Assembly: GCA_001898505.1 (NCBI GenBank)
Contig: MKTZ01000009.1
Location: 558,001 to 622,000, forward strand
Direction: 5' to 3'
Length of the DNA: 64,000 bases
Source: Sphingobacteriales bacterium 50-39
GTDB lineage: Bacteria; Bacteroidota; Bacteroidia; Chitinophagales; Chitinophagaceae
Position 1 is the stretch's first letter, and each line of letters starts with the position of its first letter. The position numbers and the translations under genes were made by a program. This document shows positions 27,063 to 38,032 of this stretch, piece by piece. Below the pieces are notes generated by a model, which was given only the letters and a program-made list of their open reading frames with translations, searched no databases and was not told where the DNA came from.

Positions 27063-29402
27063 ATGTTCAAGCATCATCTTCGGAAGAACAAATTATATTC
27101 CCTTATTAATTTATTGGGTCTTACTGCGGGCATGACCGTGGCCATCCTCATCGGACTATGGGTGAGTGATGAGCTGTCCTGGGACGAATGTCACGATCAT
27201 TACAAGCGTCTTGCACAGGTGATGGATACCCAGCTCATCAACGGCGAGCTCACTACGGGGGAAGGGAATGCTATCCCCCTGGCGGAGGAGCTGCGAAGCA
27301 AATATCCCGATGATTTCAAACGGGTAGCTCTTTTTTATCCCTTGTTCACCCATACCGTGACCGTAGACGATAGGAAGATATCGGCCGCCGGCAGCTGGGT
27401 GCAGAGCGATCTACCCGATATGCTCACTCTTCATATGTTGAGAGGCAGCCGGGATGCCCTTCGCGATCCTGCCAATGTGTTGTTGACCCGGAGCCTTGCC
27501 CACAGCTTGTTTGGCGATGCCGATCCCATGGGTAAGATCATCAAACTGGATAATATGGCCACCGTAAAGGTAGGAGGCGTATATGAGGACCTGCCCGGGA
27601 ACTCCACTTTTCATGAGGCGCGACTGCTCCTCTCCTGGGATAAGGCCCTCACCGTGCTGGACTGGTTCAAAGGCGTGCAGGGCGACTGGGGCATTCGTTA
27701 CTGGAAACTATATGTAGAGCTGAACGATAATGTGGATCTGGAAAAGGTATCTACGAAGATCCGTACTATCATGTACCAGCATATAAAAGGGGATGGTCAT
27801 GAAGTGTTGTCGCTGGCGCCGATGGAAAAATGGCATTTGTCCGGAGGGCGGATACGTATCGTGCGTCTCCTGGCGATCATCGGCGGCTTCGTGCTGCTGC
27901 TGGCCTGTATCAATTTTATGAACCTGTCCACCGCACGTAGTGAGAAAAGGGCCAGGGAGGTAGGGATACGTAAGGCCATCGGATCGTTGCGGGGACAGCT
28001 GATCGCCCAGTTTTTGGGCGAGTCGATGATCTTTGTGCTGGCGGCCGGGGTGCTGGCCCTGGTGACCGCGGGATTGTGTATGCCTTTTTTCAACCGAATG
28101 ACAGAAAAGCAGCTGTTCATCCCTGTTGGTAGTATTCTTTTTTGGTTGGGGATGCTTTTGTTTGTAGTGATCACCGGTGTGGTGGCGGGGAGCTATCCTG
28201 CTTTTTATCTGTCCTCTTTCCGGCCGGTGGAAGTATTGAAAGGCCGTTTGAATAAGGGACGGGCTGCGGGGCTGCCACGCAAGGTCCTGGTGGTCGTTCA
28301 GTTTGTCGTATCCGTCACCCTTGTTATCAGCACCATGATGGTGAGCCGGCAGGTGGAATACGTCCGAGACAGACCCGTTGGCTATATGCGGGAAGGACTT
28401 ATAGCCGTCACCATGAACAGCGGGGACATTTATGGCATACCGTATAATACCTTGCGGGATGAGTTGCGAAAGACCGGTGTGGTGGCAGATATGGCAAAAT
28501 CTTCCAGCCCGGCCACCGAGCCGCCATGGACTTCTTCCGACCTCTACTGGAAAGGGAAGGACCCGCATATACATCCGGAGATAGGGGTGGTGACCGCCAC
28601 GCATGATTATGGCAGGACCATGGGTTGGCATATTTCTGCCGGCAGGGATTTTTCCAGGGAATATATATCCGACACCGGCGCTATTGTTCTGAACCAGGCT
28701 GCCGTGCGGATGATGGGCCTGGGGCATCCCGTGGGTGAGATCATACGGGTCGATGGTAAATCCCGTACTATCATTGGAGTGACGGATGATATGGTGATGG
28801 GGTCGCCTTACAAGCCCGTGGGTGCTACCGTCTTCTGGCTGGATTATGATGCGAGGGGGTTGAATTCCATGGTCGTGCGACTGGCATCAGGTGTGCCCGT
28901 GCATAAGGCGCTGACGGCGACCGAAGAGGTCTTTTCACGATTGGCTCCCGGAGGAGCTTTTGAATACAAGTTCATCGATGAGGAATATGCCCGTAAGTTC
29001 TCCGATGAGGTGCGGGTAGGTCGTATCGTTACCGTCTTTGCCCTGCTGGCCATTTTTATCTCCTGTCTGGGGCTATTTGGGCTGGTGTCTTTTGTGGCTG
29101 AACAACGAACAAAGGAGATCGGTATACGCAGGGTGCTGGGTGCAAGGGTCATCGGTATCTGGGCCCTGCTGACCAAGGAGTTTATCGGACTCGTATCTAT
29201 CTCCTGTGTCATTGCTATTCCCATTGCATATTATTTTCTCCATGGGTGGCTGCAGCAGTACGAGTACAGGGCTGAGCTGAGCTGGTGGGTGTTTGGTGCG
29301 GGTGCGATCGGGGCGATGCTGATCACGCTGGCGACCGTGAGCTATCAGGCTATACGGGCTGCGTCGATGGATCCGGTGAAGAGCCTACGTTCGGAGGGGT
29401 GA
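27063..29402 (+). CDS. FtsX/MacB-type ABC permease, stop codon supplied by the intron
   Basis: 779 residues with the MacB architecture: an N-terminal helix, a large periplasmic domain, three helices near residues 275-390, a second periplasmic domain and three C-terminal helices. Typical motifs are ARSEKRAREVGIRKAIG and EQRTKEIGIRRVLGAR, repeated in the two halves. No ATP-binding subunit is adjacent. The last sense codon GGG and stop TGA (29400-29402) straddle the 5' end of the group II intron, so the stop codon lies inside the intron. Without the intron the frame would run 16 more codons, ending at 30089. Confidence 0.85.
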   Translation: MFKHHLRKNKLYSLINLLGLTAGMTVAILIGLWVSDELSWDECHDHYKRLAQVMDTQLINGELTTGEGNAIPLAEELRSKYPDDFKRVALFYPLFTHTVTVDDRKISAAGSWVQSDLPDMLTLHMLRGSRDALRDPANVLLTRSLAHSLFGDADPMGKIIKLDNMATVKVGGVYEDLPGNSTFHEARLLLSWDKALTVLDWFKGVQGDWGIRYWKLYVELNDNVDLEKVSTKIRTIMYQHIKGDGHEVLSLAPMEKWHLSGGRIRIVRLLAIIGGFVLLLACINFMNLSTARSEKRAREVGIRKAIGSLRGQLIAQFLGESMIFVLAAGVLALVTAGLCMPFFNRMTEKQLFIPVGSILFWLGMLLFVVITGVVAGSYPAFYLSSFRPVEVLKGRLNKGRAAGLPRKVLVVVQFVVSVTLVISTMMVSRQVEYVRDRPVGYMREGLIAVTMNSGDIYGIPYNTLRDELRKTGVVADMAKSSSPATEPPWTSSDLYWKGKDPHIHPEIGVVTATHDYGRTMGWHISAGRDFSREYISDTGAIVLNQAAVRMMGLGHPVGEIIRVDGKSRTIIGVTDDMVMGSPYKPVGATVFWLDYDARGLNSMVVRLASGVPVHKALTATEEVFSRLAPGGAFEYKFIDEEYARKFSDEVRVGRIVTVFALLAIFISCLGLFGLVSFVAEQRTKEIGIRRVLGARVIGIWALLTKEFIGLVSISCVIAIPIAYYFLHGWLQQYEYRAELSWWVFGAGAIGAMLITLATVSYQAIRAASMDPVKSLRSEG

Positions 29403-30040
29403 CACGAACAAAGGACGGCAGTTCTTTGATGCTGTACAGTAGATGGCGGAAGGCCCGCCGGAGCCGGCATACAGGTGCGGGCTTCAAACCAGCTTGAACA
29501 ATTCTGTCGAAAGGATAGGGTTGGAAGCGACAAGTCAAAAGGCACTTTGAAGAGTCAGGTAAGCTATGGGGAGACGAATGCAAATGAACCATCGAAGAGG
29601 CCTCGTTAGTAGGTAAAGTGATGTCAAAACCGGCGTTCCTCCGTTATGCCGGGATAAGCAGGGCGGAGACCTGTCTACTGGCTCTGTGGCATCCGGGGTA
29701 AAGATGGCGTGAACCGATAGCAGGCTACTGTATGGAACGTGTGAGATCCTGCCAGGGATGATAAGGGAAAAGGCACAAGGGCGTCCAACCTGAGGCTGAA
29801 AGTACCGATGCGGTGGCAGGAAGTCGGACCAGCCCAAAGTAGTGAGGAAGCTGCGTAATGGCAGTGGAGCGAAGGGGCTGGCATTGTCGAAGTGGATATG
29901 GGTCACAACTCTGCAAAGAGGAAGACGACAGATGTTCGCAACAACACGAAACGTGTATGACAATGAAAAGCCGTATGAGGGGAGACTGTCACGTACGGAT
30001 TTGAGAGGGCTTAGGGCTGAAATGCTCTATTCTACTCGAC
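29399..30040 (+). other. ORF-less group II intron (or intron relic)
   Basis: 642 nt ribozyme-like element. The 5' end GTGAC is close to the GUGYG consensus. Domain I has a hairpin (29630-29652, six pairs) whose 11-nt loop carries EBS1 (TCCTCCG, 29637-29643); this pairs over seven positions, one a G-U, with IBS1 (CGGAGGG, 29392-29398) directly upstream of the 5' end. EBS2 (GTAGG, 29609-29613) pairs with IBS2 (CCTAC, 29384-29388). Domain V lies at about 29967-30002 (AAAGCCGTATG ... GTACGGATTT), followed by a domain VI-like tail ending CTACTCGAC at 30040. No reverse-transcriptase gene is present, so it depends on a maturase from elsewhere or is dead. The G of the domain V AGC triad faces A, not U. 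Confidence 0.8.
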
Positions 30041-30778
30041 TAGCCTTCCCAGTTCTTTAGGGACCGTGATCCTATACTCATTCACGTAGATCCCGTTCCT
30101 GACAATGTTGCGCTTGCCATTTCCTAATTCTATATTTGTTCCATATATTTCTTCAAACCACTCGTGACAGGCTTTGTCAGCCATGTAAGCAAAAAGTCGT
30201 TTTACTTTAACAGAACGGCAATTTTCAAGTAATGCCTCCACTTCTTCCGGCTGCAGATCATTTAATCCTTCCATTAATTCGTAGCATTCCATGAGATCCT
30301 GGTGATGAGGCGCGAGGTAAATGCATTCCATCAATGCGCGAGCGGGGCCTGAAACAGCCAGGTTGAGACCACTTACTTCCCTGTTTATCATCCCTGGATG
30401 TGGGTCTAAAAAGGAGGTTGGATGGTAGTCGATCTTTACTCCCCAGTCATGCTTGCTGAACCATGCGGGTAGTTTCTCTTTTGGGCTGCCGAACAGTACA
30501 AGTTCTTTCACCGATGGTTCCAGGTAAAAGGCTGTCCTGGCCCCTGGATGTATAGAAAGATTGCTTTGTTGCTGCAATGCATAAATGGCTCCTTCAACAC
30601 TGGCTTTGTCGCCGGCACGGATGTAAGCCCCCGCACCTATAGGCAGCAGCCATTTACTCTTTTTATATCGTTGTTGCAGGTCGTGACTGTAGCCTTGCTG
30701 TTTTAGCCAGGATGATTGCAATATAATACCTGCTGGTCGAAGGTCGAAAAGTCGGTTTAATTTATCCCTATTTTCCAT
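30032..30778 (-). CDS. AbiEi-like antitoxin-domain protein, orphan
   Basis: 248 residues. The N-terminal winged helix has the pattern of type IV antitoxins (LRPAGIILQSSWLKQQGYS, then KSKWLLPIGAGAYIR). The remainder (GARTAFYLEPSVKEL, VLFGSP, GNGKRNIVRNGIYV) also fits AbiEi-type proteins, which repress their own operon and counter an AbiEii nucleotidyltransferase. No toxin gene is present on either side. The last residues (VE and the stop) are read from the intron's 3' end in antisense, so the true ancestral C-terminus differed slightly. It could also act as an ordinary transcription regulator. Confidence 0.75.
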   Translation of the reverse strand: MENRDKLNRLFDLRPAGIILQSSWLKQQGYSHDLQQRYKKSKWLLPIGAGAYIRAGDKASVEGAIYALQQQSNLSIHPGARTAFYLEPSVKELVLFGSPKEKLPAWFSKHDWGVKIDYHPTSFLDPHPGMINREVSGLNLAVSGPARALMECIYLAPHHQDLMECYELMEGLNDLQPEEVEALLENCRSVKVKRLFAYMADKACHEWFEEIYGTNIELGNGKRNIVRNGIYVNEYRITVPKELGRLVE

Positions 30779-35602: not shown

Positions 35603-38032
35603 ATGATACGCAACTACTTTCTGACTGCCTGGAGAAATCTGAAGACCCATAGACTGAATGCCATCATCAACATAGCCGGACTGGCCATCGCCTTCACCGT
35701 CTGTATCCTGCTCTTCCTGATGGTGCATTTTGAATTCTCCTTCGACAAATGGCATAAGAATGTAAACACCCTATACATGGCCTACAACCTGAGCCATGCG
35801 CCAGACGGGGATCAAAAAGGGTCTGTTTTCGGATATCCGGCGGCACCAGCCTTCAAGACGGAAGTGCCGGGCATTGTGAGGACGACTGATTATATGGCGA
35901 TGGGTGGCGGTGTCCGTTATAAAGATAAGGAAGTAGGCAAGAGCGTCACGCTGGTGAGCCCTGATTTTCTGGACATGTTCAGTTTCCCGGTGGTGGCGGG
36001 AAATAAAACCACGCCATTGGCCGACCTTGGCAGTGCTGTCCTTACCCAGTCCTCTGCTGCAGCCGTATTTGGCAAGGAAGATCCAATCGGCAAAGTGATA
36101 AAGGCAAAGATCAATGGTTCCTGGAAGGACCTCGTAGTCACCGCTGTCGTACAGGATGCTCCGGAGAATTCCACGTTGCAGTTCAATGTGCTGGCACGCA
36201 TCGAGCTCAATAGTGACTATGCTGCTCAAAAGAATGAATGGAATATCCAGCATCATCCGGTATATGTACAGTTGGCGCCGGGCGTCACACACCGCCAGGT
36301 CGAAACAAATTTAAGGGAGCTGGTAAAAAAGCGCCATCTGGCGGATGAAGAATATATGAAAGGCAAGGGCTATCGCAAGGACGCCAACGGGGATATGTAC
36401 GCTATCAAGCTGGCGCCCTATTCTTCTCTTCACTTCGACGAGGAACTGGGCCGGGGTGCGGTGAATAGGAACTATTTATTTATCCTGATCCTCATAGCTA
36501 TAGTGGTGTTGGTCATTGCCTGCTTCAATTTTATCAACCTGAATGTCGCCAGGGCCTTTACCCGTGCCAAAGAAGTCGGGGTGCGTAAGACCATCGGAGC
36601 CGGCAAGACCCAGATATTTTTCCAGATGTGGAATGAAAGTCTGCTGTTGTTTTCCGTTGCGTTGATCATGGCAGTGGGACTGGCCGTACTCTTGCTGGAT
36701 CCATTTAACAGACTCTTTGTCGAAAAGCTGACCATGCAGGCCCTGGTGCAGCCGCTGGTAGTCCTGTGCGTACTGGCTGGCATGCTGTTGGTGTCGTTTA
36801 TGGCTGGCGGCTATCCGGCCTGGCTGGTGGCAAAGTTCAGGACCGTGGAAGTATTGAAAGGCAGGGTCTCGGTAGGACGGAGCTCGATGATACGCAATGG
36901 GCTCATTACTTTCCAATTTGTTATGGCCTGTCTGCTAATATGCAGCACCATTGTTATTTACCGTCAGTTCCAGTACATGCGCACGGCTCCATTGGGTTAC
37001 GAACAGGAGTCGGTGATCAGCATCCCTGTGAAGAATCAGGAGAATTCCCTTCGATATATCCGTCAATTACGCCAGGAGCTTGCCTCTCAACCCCAGGTTG
37101 TCAACGTGACAGGCAGCTCCGCCAACATCGGTATTGGAGAAGACCACAGTCAGAGTGGTTGGAGCATCGGATTTACCTATAATGGGAAGGGCATTATGAC
37201 GGAGATGCTGACCGTCGATTATGATTTCCTGGAGACCATCGGCGTCAAGCTGCTGGCCGGCAGAAACTTCAGTCGTGAATATCCTGCTGACACATCTGCC
37301 AATATCCGGAATGTCATTGTTTCGGAAAGCATGGCGAGGCAATTCGCCGAAAAGAATATAATAGGTCTGTCGTTTTATTCGGACAGCGCTGAGCCGAAAT
37401 GGAATATCGTCGGATTGATACCGGACATCCACCTGCATAGTCTGCATGACAAGATGGGCGCCCTGACATTGGAGATGGCCAAGCAGCATACGTCGTTGGG
37501 ATATATCATGGTCAAAGTGCGTACGAACAATCCCCGGCAGGCAATGGCCATCGTGCGGGACGCTTATAAGACTATCGAGCCCGATAATTCTACCAACCCT
37601 TCCTATCTCACGGAAAATACCTATCGCTGGTATGCCAAGGAAGAAAGACTGTCTACTCTTTTTTGTACGGCGTCTGTCATTGCCATCGTGTTGTCCTGTC
37701 TTGGACTTTTCGCTATCGTTTCGCTGGTGATCGGGCGGCGTCGCAAGGAGATCGGGGTCCGCAAGGTATTGGGTGCATCGGTGACGGGGATCACGGGACT
37801 GCTGTCAAAAGAATTCCTCCGGCTGGTGGCCCTGGCCTTTTTAATAGCTACGCCCATTGCCTGGTATTCCCTTAATAAATGGTTGACGGATTTTCCATAC
37901 AGGATCACGCTCAGCTGGTGGGTATTCCCGCTGGCGGGTGTGACGGCGCTGGTTATTGCGTTGGGTACGATCAGTATACTCACCATACAGGCATCGCTGG
38001 CCAATCCCGTGAAGAGCCTCAGGACTGAGTAA
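35603..38032 (+). CDS. FtsX/MacB-type ABC permease
   Basis: 809 residues with the same architecture as the permease at 27063: an N-terminal helix (IINIAGLAIAFTVCILLFLM), a large periplasmic domain, then two sets of three helices with the paired motifs RAKEVGVRKTIGAGK and RRKEIGVRKVLGASV. It ends with NPVKSLRTE, a common terminus of this group. No ATPase gene is adjacent, as usual for these Bacteroidota genes. Its final 14 bases overlap the encapsulin gene on the opposite strand. Confidence 0.9.
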   Translation: MIRNYFLTAWRNLKTHRLNAIINIAGLAIAFTVCILLFLMVHFEFSFDKWHKNVNTLYMAYNLSHAPDGDQKGSVFGYPAAPAFKTEVPGIVRTTDYMAMGGGVRYKDKEVGKSVTLVSPDFLDMFSFPVVAGNKTTPLADLGSAVLTQSSAAAVFGKEDPIGKVIKAKINGSWKDLVVTAVVQDAPENSTLQFNVLARIELNSDYAAQKNEWNIQHHPVYVQLAPGVTHRQVETNLRELVKKRHLADEEYMKGKGYRKDANGDMYAIKLAPYSSLHFDEELGRGAVNRNYLFILILIAIVVLVIACFNFINLNVARAFTRAKEVGVRKTIGAGKTQIFFQMWNESLLLFSVALIMAVGLAVLLLDPFNRLFVEKLTMQALVQPLVVLCVLAGMLLVSFMAGGYPAWLVAKFRTVEVLKGRVSVGRSSMIRNGLITFQFVMACLLICSTIVIYRQFQYMRTAPLGYEQESVISIPVKNQENSLRYIRQLRQELASQPQVVNVTGSSANIGIGEDHSQSGWSIGFTYNGKGIMTEMLTVDYDFLETIGVKLLAGRNFSREYPADTSANIRNVIVSESMARQFAEKNIIGLSFYSDSAEPKWNIVGLIPDIHLHSLHDKMGALTLEMAKQHTSLGYIMVKVRTNNPRQAMAIVRDAYKTIEPDNSTNPSYLTENTYRWYAKEERLSTLFCTASVIAIVLSCLGLFAIVSLVIGRRRKEIGVRKVLGASVTGITGLLSKEFLRLVALAFLIATPIAWYSLNKWLTDFPYRITLSWWVFPLAGVTALVIALGTISILTIQASLANPVKSLRTE

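What the first reader, a model, noticed from the sequence alone, without database searches (positions are those of the whole stretch)
29399..30040. ORF-less group II intron with matching exon-binding sites
Seen: EBS1 in a domain I hairpin loop (29637-29643) pairs over seven bases with the exon bases just before the proposed 5' end (29392-29398), EBS2 pairs with IBS2, and a domain V-like hairpin and a CTACTCGAC end lie at the 3' side. There is no reverse transcriptase. Known: bacterial group II introns normally carry an IEP gene in domain IV. Inference: a trans-mobilised or dead intron.
Basis: partly seen in the sequence, partly recalled or inferred. Interest (0 to 1): 0.75.

Follow-up and report, generated by a model that had tools for sequence, protein, structure and literature searches.

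The report
Intron parked before a stop codon
A self-splicing RNA element that has lost its own mobility gene sits exactly between the last codon and the stop codon of a membrane-transporter gene, and its first six bases bring a new stop codon, so the host protein is nearly unchanged whether or not the element is cut out.

Summary
The ORF-less group II intron is real: Rfam domain I and domain V/VI hits, and EBS pairing with its own exon. The intron is 29397-30040 (644 nt), shown by an orthologous empty site (GAA|TAG) in a congener and by 29 paralogues read in the same genome (28 end in Glu + stop). It lies between the last codon and the stop of a MacB/FtsX permease, a family with at least 87 C-termini in this genome. 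Splicing would give ...SLRSE*; unspliced RNA gives ...SLRSEG*, because the intron begins GGG-TGA where relatives begin GUGUGY. A congener has an 83-93% identical intron with a reverse transcriptase in domain IV; ours keeps only the ends of that gene. In 33 congeneric genomes five copies or 5' stubs sit at this junction in five different permease genes. The host genome has no close IEP, and equal or better target sites are empty, so it is probably immobile now. Splicing is untested. A new variant of a known kind (introns at stop codons have precedents): a lineage in a niche where splicing is dispensable, whose remains can stay as the host gene's stop.

The parts
27063..29396 (+). 5' exon: MacB_PCD/FtsX-type ABC permease gene, coding part up to the last Glu codon (...DPVKSLRSE)
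   Evidence: ORF; Pfam PF12704 and PF02687; G002 orthologue 73% identical ends at the same Glu
29383..29388 (+). IBS2 (GCCTAC)
   Evidence: pairs 5 WC + 1 GU with EBS2; differs together with EBS2 from G021 ATCTGC/GCAGAT
29391..29396 (+). IBS1 (TCGGAG)
   Evidence: 5 of 6 pairs with EBS1; across 16 members own pairing exceeds each of 10000 re-dealings
29397..30040 (+). ORF-less group II intron, 644 nt, 5' GGGUGACACG...CUACUCGAC 3'
   Evidence: Rfam, empty orthologue and paralogues, relatives' 5' ends
29400..29402 (+). in-frame TGA stop carried by the intron; ends the unspliced ORF as ...SLRSEG*
   Evidence: translation
29445..29560 (+). domain I core
   Evidence: RF01999 76.2 bits
29609..29614 (+). 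EBS2 (GTAGGT)
   Evidence: aligned loop
29639..29644 (+). EBS1 (CTCCGT)
29932..29966 (+). domain IV remnant: start codon region to stop codon of the lost IEP ORF, 35 bases
   Evidence: compared with both ends of the IEP in G021
29966..30040 (+). domains V and VI; bulged A at 30034
   Evidence: RF00029 53.8 bits; fold
30041..30043 (+). 3' exon start: TAG, the permease's own stop codon after splicing
   Evidence: G002 empty site GAA|TAG; spliced frame DPVKSLRSE*
30032..30778 (-). convergent AbiEi_3 antitoxin-like gene whose last codons and stop lie in the intron's 3' end (neighbour, not part of the intron)
   Evidence: ORF, Pfam PF11459, PF17194

Best explanation
This is a group II intron that lost its reverse transcriptase/maturase gene by a deletion inside domain IV. 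It belongs to a lineage that inserts, by EBS1/EBS2 pairing, into the conserved 3' end of MacB/FtsX permease genes, exactly between the last codon (Glu) and the stop codon. Shown by sequence: boundaries, target site, IEP-bearing sister, recurrence at the same junction in different permease genes, and an in-frame stop at intron bases 4-6. Inferred: because spliced (...SLRSE*) and unspliced (...SLRSEG*) RNA both give a nearly normal permease, the insertion is close to neutral, so copies without a maturase, and even 5' stubs, can persist. Inferred: the window copy is now immobile or nearly so, and its splicing, if any, depends on self-splicing or on a distant maturase such as that of the C10 intron. 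Whether it still splices is left open; the first two rivals below differ from this statement only there and in mobility, so the odds overlap.
For: Rfam hits. Orthologous empty site GAA|TAG in G002 with the same downstream alpha-amylase/pullulanase-type gene. In the own genome 28 of 29 paralogue 3' ends read (the 29 best of 86 matched) are GAR + stop, the other GAC + stop, none EG*. IEP-bearing sister in G021. Five intron copies or stubs in 4 of 33 congeneric genomes, at the Glu|stop junction of five permeases that are 31-44% identical to each other over about 250 residues; the scan without the GAR prefix gave 5 hits, 4 of them these and 1 chance. EBS1/IBS1 own pairing 86.5 of 96 in 16 members, re-dealt mean 63.9, sd 3.3, 0 of 10000 as good. 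EBS2/IBS2 differ between window and G021, yet each fits its own site better than the other's.
Against: No RNA data: splicing is not shown. EBS1/IBS1 has a U-U mismatch at -6, and with the boundary one or two bases further the pairing scores higher. GGGUG departs from the GUGYG rule at base 2, which might weaken splicing. Domain V has a G-G mismatch that none of 34 other domain Vs has. Of the five only the window shows both junctions on one contig; G021's lie on two contigs, and three are 5' stubs, one of them 16 bases with one mismatch. Four of 8 permeases in the genus that match SLR(S/T)E-GGG-TGA have no clear intron sequence behind it, so that ending is not proof of an intron.
Confidence: 0.8

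Rival explanations
1. A fully functional, trans-spliced and trans-mobilised intron: the C10 intron's IEP (or another) acts as driver, as in Thermosynechococcus elongatus.
For: The genome holds three other RVT_1 genes, each near a group II domain V; the C10 IEP is 63% identical to the N-terminal part of the G021 IEP and its RNA 67-71% identical to ours in parts. The ribozyme keeps 120 of 128 consensus pairs and own EBS pairing.
Against: The C-terminal part of the C10 IEP is only 42% identical; there is a single copy; an empty site with the identical 17 nt (L094) and one pairing better (L113) exist among 29 paralogues compared.
Confidence: 0.2
2. A dead relic: neither splices nor moves; it is now only a 3' tail and stop codon of the permease gene.
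For: Stubs at the same junction in G032, G013 and G021:C208 show that the body can be lost; a domain V mismatch found in none of 34 others; GGGUG instead of GUGUG; substitutions from G021 are nearly as frequent in paired columns (36 of 258) as in the rest (60 of 345, gapped columns included).
Against: Rfam finds DI and DV/DVI, the stretch between aligns with relatives, the whole RNA folds well, and 5 of 7 both-sided changes from G021 keep pairing (on a structure derived from the same alignment).
Confidence: 0.4
3. Alternative splicing device: splicing at 29398/29399 would add residues to the permease (...SEGSLPSSLGTVILYSFT*).
Against: The empty orthologue and paralogues show that the two G's belong to the intron; the extra peptide is antisense to the AbiEi-like gene.
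Confidence: 0.05

Closest known systems
Thermosynechococcus elongatus ORF-less group II introns (TeI3 family)
   Same: ORF lost by deletion in domain IV with remnants of both ORF ends; good EBS/IBS pairing for most (PMC2882425, passages)
   Different: There 17 ORF-less copies and active driver IEPs; here one copy, no close IEP in the genome, and the target is a permease 3' end
Intron at the stop codon of groEL of Azotobacter vinelandii
   Same: Insertion at a termination codon of a protein gene. PMC4465626 (passages) places the A. vinelandii intron near the groEL 3' end and says its A. chroococcum orthologue is not exactly at the termination codon; it cites Michel et al. [quoted passage not shown]
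   Different: Belongs to a lineage with a large 5' insertion (same passage). Here the site recurs in a multigene family, the intron's first six bases bring an in-frame stop, and stubs remain
C.te.I1 of Clostridium tetani
   Same: ORF-less bacterial intron with a stop codon at the 5' junction, so spliced and unspliced RNA differ at the C-terminus (PMC3919590, passages)
   Different: C.te.I1 fuses reading frames by a shifted 5' site; here splicing restores the gene's own stop and changes one residue
Related group II introns of Chitinophagaceae and of proteobacterial plasmids
   Same: Same RNA family, stretches 66-87% identical, CTACTCGAY-type end
   Different: Those with a readable start begin GUGUGY and sit elsewhere, four of them in a DUF4134 (traE-like) gene; 16 of the fetched loci encode a close relative of the G021 IEP

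Membership tests
Bacterial group II intron | Domain V/VI covariance match | tested here: met
   RF00029 53.8 bits, gathering 40
Bacterial group II intron | Domain I match | tested here: met
   RF01999 76.2 bits, gathering 36
Bacterial group II intron | EBS1/IBS1 and EBS2/IBS2 pairing with own exon | tested here: met
   EBS1 5 of 6, EBS2 6 of 6 with one G-U
Bacterial group II intron | GUGYG 5' end and AY 3' end | tested here: not met
   3' AC is met; 5' is GGGUG, while relatives have GUGUGY. PMC4424553 (passages) says the vast majority of introns have these ends; I treat it as a strong tendency, not a definition, so membership is kept
Bacterial group II intron | Precise empty site | tested here: met
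   G002 orthologue GAA|TAG
Bacterial group II intron | Splicing | not testable with these tools
   no RNA data
Mobile group II intron (retroelement form) | IEP with RT in domain IV | tested here: not met
   no RT ORF in 29397-30040; deletion remnant
Trans-mobilised ORF-less intron | Closely related IEP in the same genome | tested here: not met
   closest IEP 63% and 42% identical to the two G021 IEP parts
Trans-mobilised ORF-less intron | Several copies of the ORF-less form | tested here: not met
   one copy

The most novel reading that the evidence does not exclude
A group II intron lineage has specialised on the Glu|stop junction of a permease family with at least 87 C-termini in one genome, and its 5' end changed from GUGUGY to GGGUGA so that it brings its own in-frame stop. 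This frees it from the need to splice, lets ORF-less copies survive, and leaves 5' stubs behind as lasting host stop codons: an intron whose insertion is safe by where it lands and how it reads, not by splicing.
Probability: 0.45. Interest if true: 0.72.

Novelty: new variant of a known kind. Interest (0 to 1): 0.55.

Why it matters
ORF-less bacterial group II introns are called rare and nearly always have a related IEP in the genome (PMC4424553, passages). Here the site itself makes splicing dispensable, and natural replicates (a copy with IEP, an ORF-less copy, 5' stubs, empty sites) exist in one genus. That makes the loss of the mobility gene, and the use of intron sequence as a host stop codon, directly testable. 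It also bears on how a retroelement can use a conserved protein end, repeated in a large gene family, as a reservoir of sites.

Tried and rejected
A phylum scan with a 15-mer (395 genomes) and a family scan with a 16-mer (394 genomes), both without mismatches, found only the own copy; they do not exclude diverged members, and neither draw included G021, G032 or G013. The IEP search in genome contigs gave 5 loci, one matching G021's own contig in length and at 100% identity. A loop-fixed EBS1 test misplaced the loop in some members; I replaced it by a search within the loop. An EBS2 permutation over all members was not convincing (own 48.5, shuffled mean 38.1, sd 6.8, maximum 59.0), so EBS2 is claimed for the window and G021 only. 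The boundary of the C10 intron next to a SusD stop stayed unresolved, and it was left out of the EBS1 permutations. G031 and G000:C3 are chance matches to the 5' pattern. G001:C590 holds intron-like 3' sequence with a degenerate domain V; I saw no permease frame there. The domain V GGAU variant was first read as damage, but 5 of 34 other domain Vs share it, so it is not counted as such. The overall interest was lowered from 0.58 to 0.55 after one search confirmed a precedent at a termination codon.

Full report
What was checked. The window lies in a 7.9-Mb, 27-contig genome (G000:C9:558001-622000). The relative G021 appears to be a Chitinophagaceae MAG (contig of the same length, 100% match). 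Rfam finds group II domain I at 29445-29560 (76.2 bits) and domains V/VI at 29966-30040 (53.8 bits), the only 2 matches at gathering level in the window. No RT ORF lies between them. The RNA folds 4.4 sd below the mean of 20 shuffles and shows a DVI bulged A at 30034, seven bases from the end.

Boundaries. The 5' exon is a MacB_PCD/FtsX permease. The own genome has 87 matches to its C-terminus at E up to 5.4e-15, the window's own included (counted, which scored 150 of 188 candidates, so a lower bound). Of the 86 paralogues I read the 29 best-scoring 3' ends: 28 end in Glu then stop, one in Asp then stop, none in Glu-Gly. One more in this window, 35603-38032, ends ...VKSLRTE*. In other genomes of the genus 28 loci were printed: 25 end in Glu + stop, 1 in Asp, 1 in Ser-Gly, 1 could not be read. 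The best of them, G002, is 73% identical (next best 53%), ends TCG GAA|TAG, and is followed by the same alpha-amylase/pullulanase-type gene as in the window; the AbiEi-like gene that lies between them in the window is not there. Hence the inserted stretch is 29397-30040, and the 3' exon starts with the permease's own TAG.

The 5' end. Aligned to relatives, the intron starts GGGUGACACGAAC. Nine Chitinophagaceae relatives whose first two bases were not part of the search (L061, L063, L067, L068, L072, L074, L075, L079, L080) and three proteobacterial plasmid introns start GUGUGY; five more (L064, L065, L070, L077, L078) were placed by that motif itself and say less. The window copy thus differs at base 2 (U to G) and base 6 (U or C to A), which makes GGG TGA in frame with the exon. 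Unspliced...SLRSEG*; spliced...SLRSE*. In four of four relatives inserted in a DUF4134 gene (Pfam on one of them; the name traE is recalled) the junction also yields an in-frame stop, there TAG, but there the protein is truncated without splicing. A review says that most group I introns have an in-frame stop just past the 5' junction, to keep ribosomes out (PMC3073962, passages).

Origin. G021 has a stretch 83% identical over the first 538 bases with an IEP start in domain IV, and on another contig an IEP end plus the last 82 bases at 93%. The IEP breaks off at the contig ends, and the two contigs were not shown to be one copy. From start codon to stop codon the window has 35 bases in place of the IEP, its first and last bases recognisable, as described for T. 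elongatus (PMC2882425, passages). NCBIfam's best match to the G021 N-terminal piece is group_II_RT_mat, under its cut-off (264.9 of 300 bits) as the piece is partial.

Recurrence. Among 33 congeneric genomes, GARGGGTGACACGAAC with up to one mismatch gave 6 hits (the backward control 2). One is chance (G031). Five are at the Glu|stop junction of permeases: the window, G021:C192 (with IEP), G032:C70 (78-base stub, 81%), G013:C429 (15 exact bases; further similarity by eye only), G021:C208 (15 of 16 bases). Without the GAR prefix, the exact 13-mer gave 5 hits (control 0), 4 of them these and 1 chance. The five host genes are 31-44% identical to each other over about 250 residues, so they are paralogues and the insertions look independent. 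A scan for permeases ending SLR(S/T)E-GGG-TGA gave 15 hits (control 2), 8 in permeases: 4 of the above and 4 without clear intron sequence (12 of 16 bases in G021:C297, 9 of 16 in G032:C353, none evident in G031:C755 and G002:C12). Those may be eroded stubs or ordinary variants.

Targeting. EBS1 loops pair with their own exons across 16 members at 86.5 of 96; 10000 re-dealings averaged 63.9 with a maximum of 78 (C10 was dropped for its unclear boundary; with L065 also dropped, 80.5 of 90 against a maximum of 72). Members are related, so this is not a strict probability. EBS2 GTAGGT/GCCTAC in the window and GCAGAT/ATCTGC in G021 fit their own sites (5.5 and 6.0) better than each other's (5.0 for the window's EBS2 on the G021 site, 3.5 the other way); for EBS1 the own scores are 5.0 and 5.5, the crossed ones 4.0 and 5.0. 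L094 has the same 17-nt site and L113 pairs better, and both are empty.

State of the ribozyme. In a consensus of 16 sequences the window keeps 120 of 128 pairs and G021 123 of 128; other members range from 88 to 100% (the structure comes from the same alignment). Window and G021 differ at 36 of 258 paired columns and 60 of the other 345, a weak sign of constraint. Domain V of the window alone among 35 has a broken pair in the upper stem. So activity is possible but not shown.

Known work. Bacterial ORF-less introns are called rare, nearly always with a related IEP in the genome, C.te.I1 being the exception named (PMC4424553, passages). An intron at the groEL termination codon of Azotobacter vinelandii is a precedent for the place (PMC4465626, passages). 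Six searches of the held library (20 of 108, 20 of 43, 20 of 36, 15 of 26, 10 of 10 and 10 of 22 papers listed) showed no title or abstract start on the arrangement described here. Passages of eight papers were seen, none read whole; Michel et al. 2007, which may bear on it, was not seen.

Verdict. Ordinary in kind (group II intron), unusual in niche. The mechanism to which I commit: retrohoming by EBS pairing into the permease 3' end; near-neutral because the intron's own stop makes splicing dispensable; loss of the IEP; decay to stubs that remain as host stop codons. The anatomy and the target are well supported; neutrality, immobility and the selective origin of GGGUGA are inference.

Noticed in passing
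30032-30778: AbiEi_3-type antitoxin-like gene; no toxin partner was looked for beyond the neighbouring ORFs; absent from the syntenic place in G002; its last codons and stop are in the intron's 3' end.
   Followed up: partly
own genome: At least 87 MacB/FtsX permease C-termini in one 7.9-Mb genome; in the 30 read, the end is close to ...NPVKSLR(S/T)E*.
   Followed up: partly
L009 1196-3072 (G000:C10): IEP-bearing relative next to the stop of a SusD gene (Pfam PF07980) ending ...QNPGY; its exact boundary is unclear.
   Followed up: partly
L068, L070, L079, L080: Relatives inserted at one site in DUF4134 (traE-like) genes of four genomes, each junction making an in-frame TAG.
   Followed up: partly
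L064 and L065 (G574): Two introns in one genome with the same EBS1 loop at different sites and near-identical aligned sequence, a possible sign of recent movement.
   Followed up: no
L012 2640-2907 and L019 start of the minus strand: The G021 IEP breaks off in the same RT motif on two contig ends, by another element or an assembly break.
   Followed up: no
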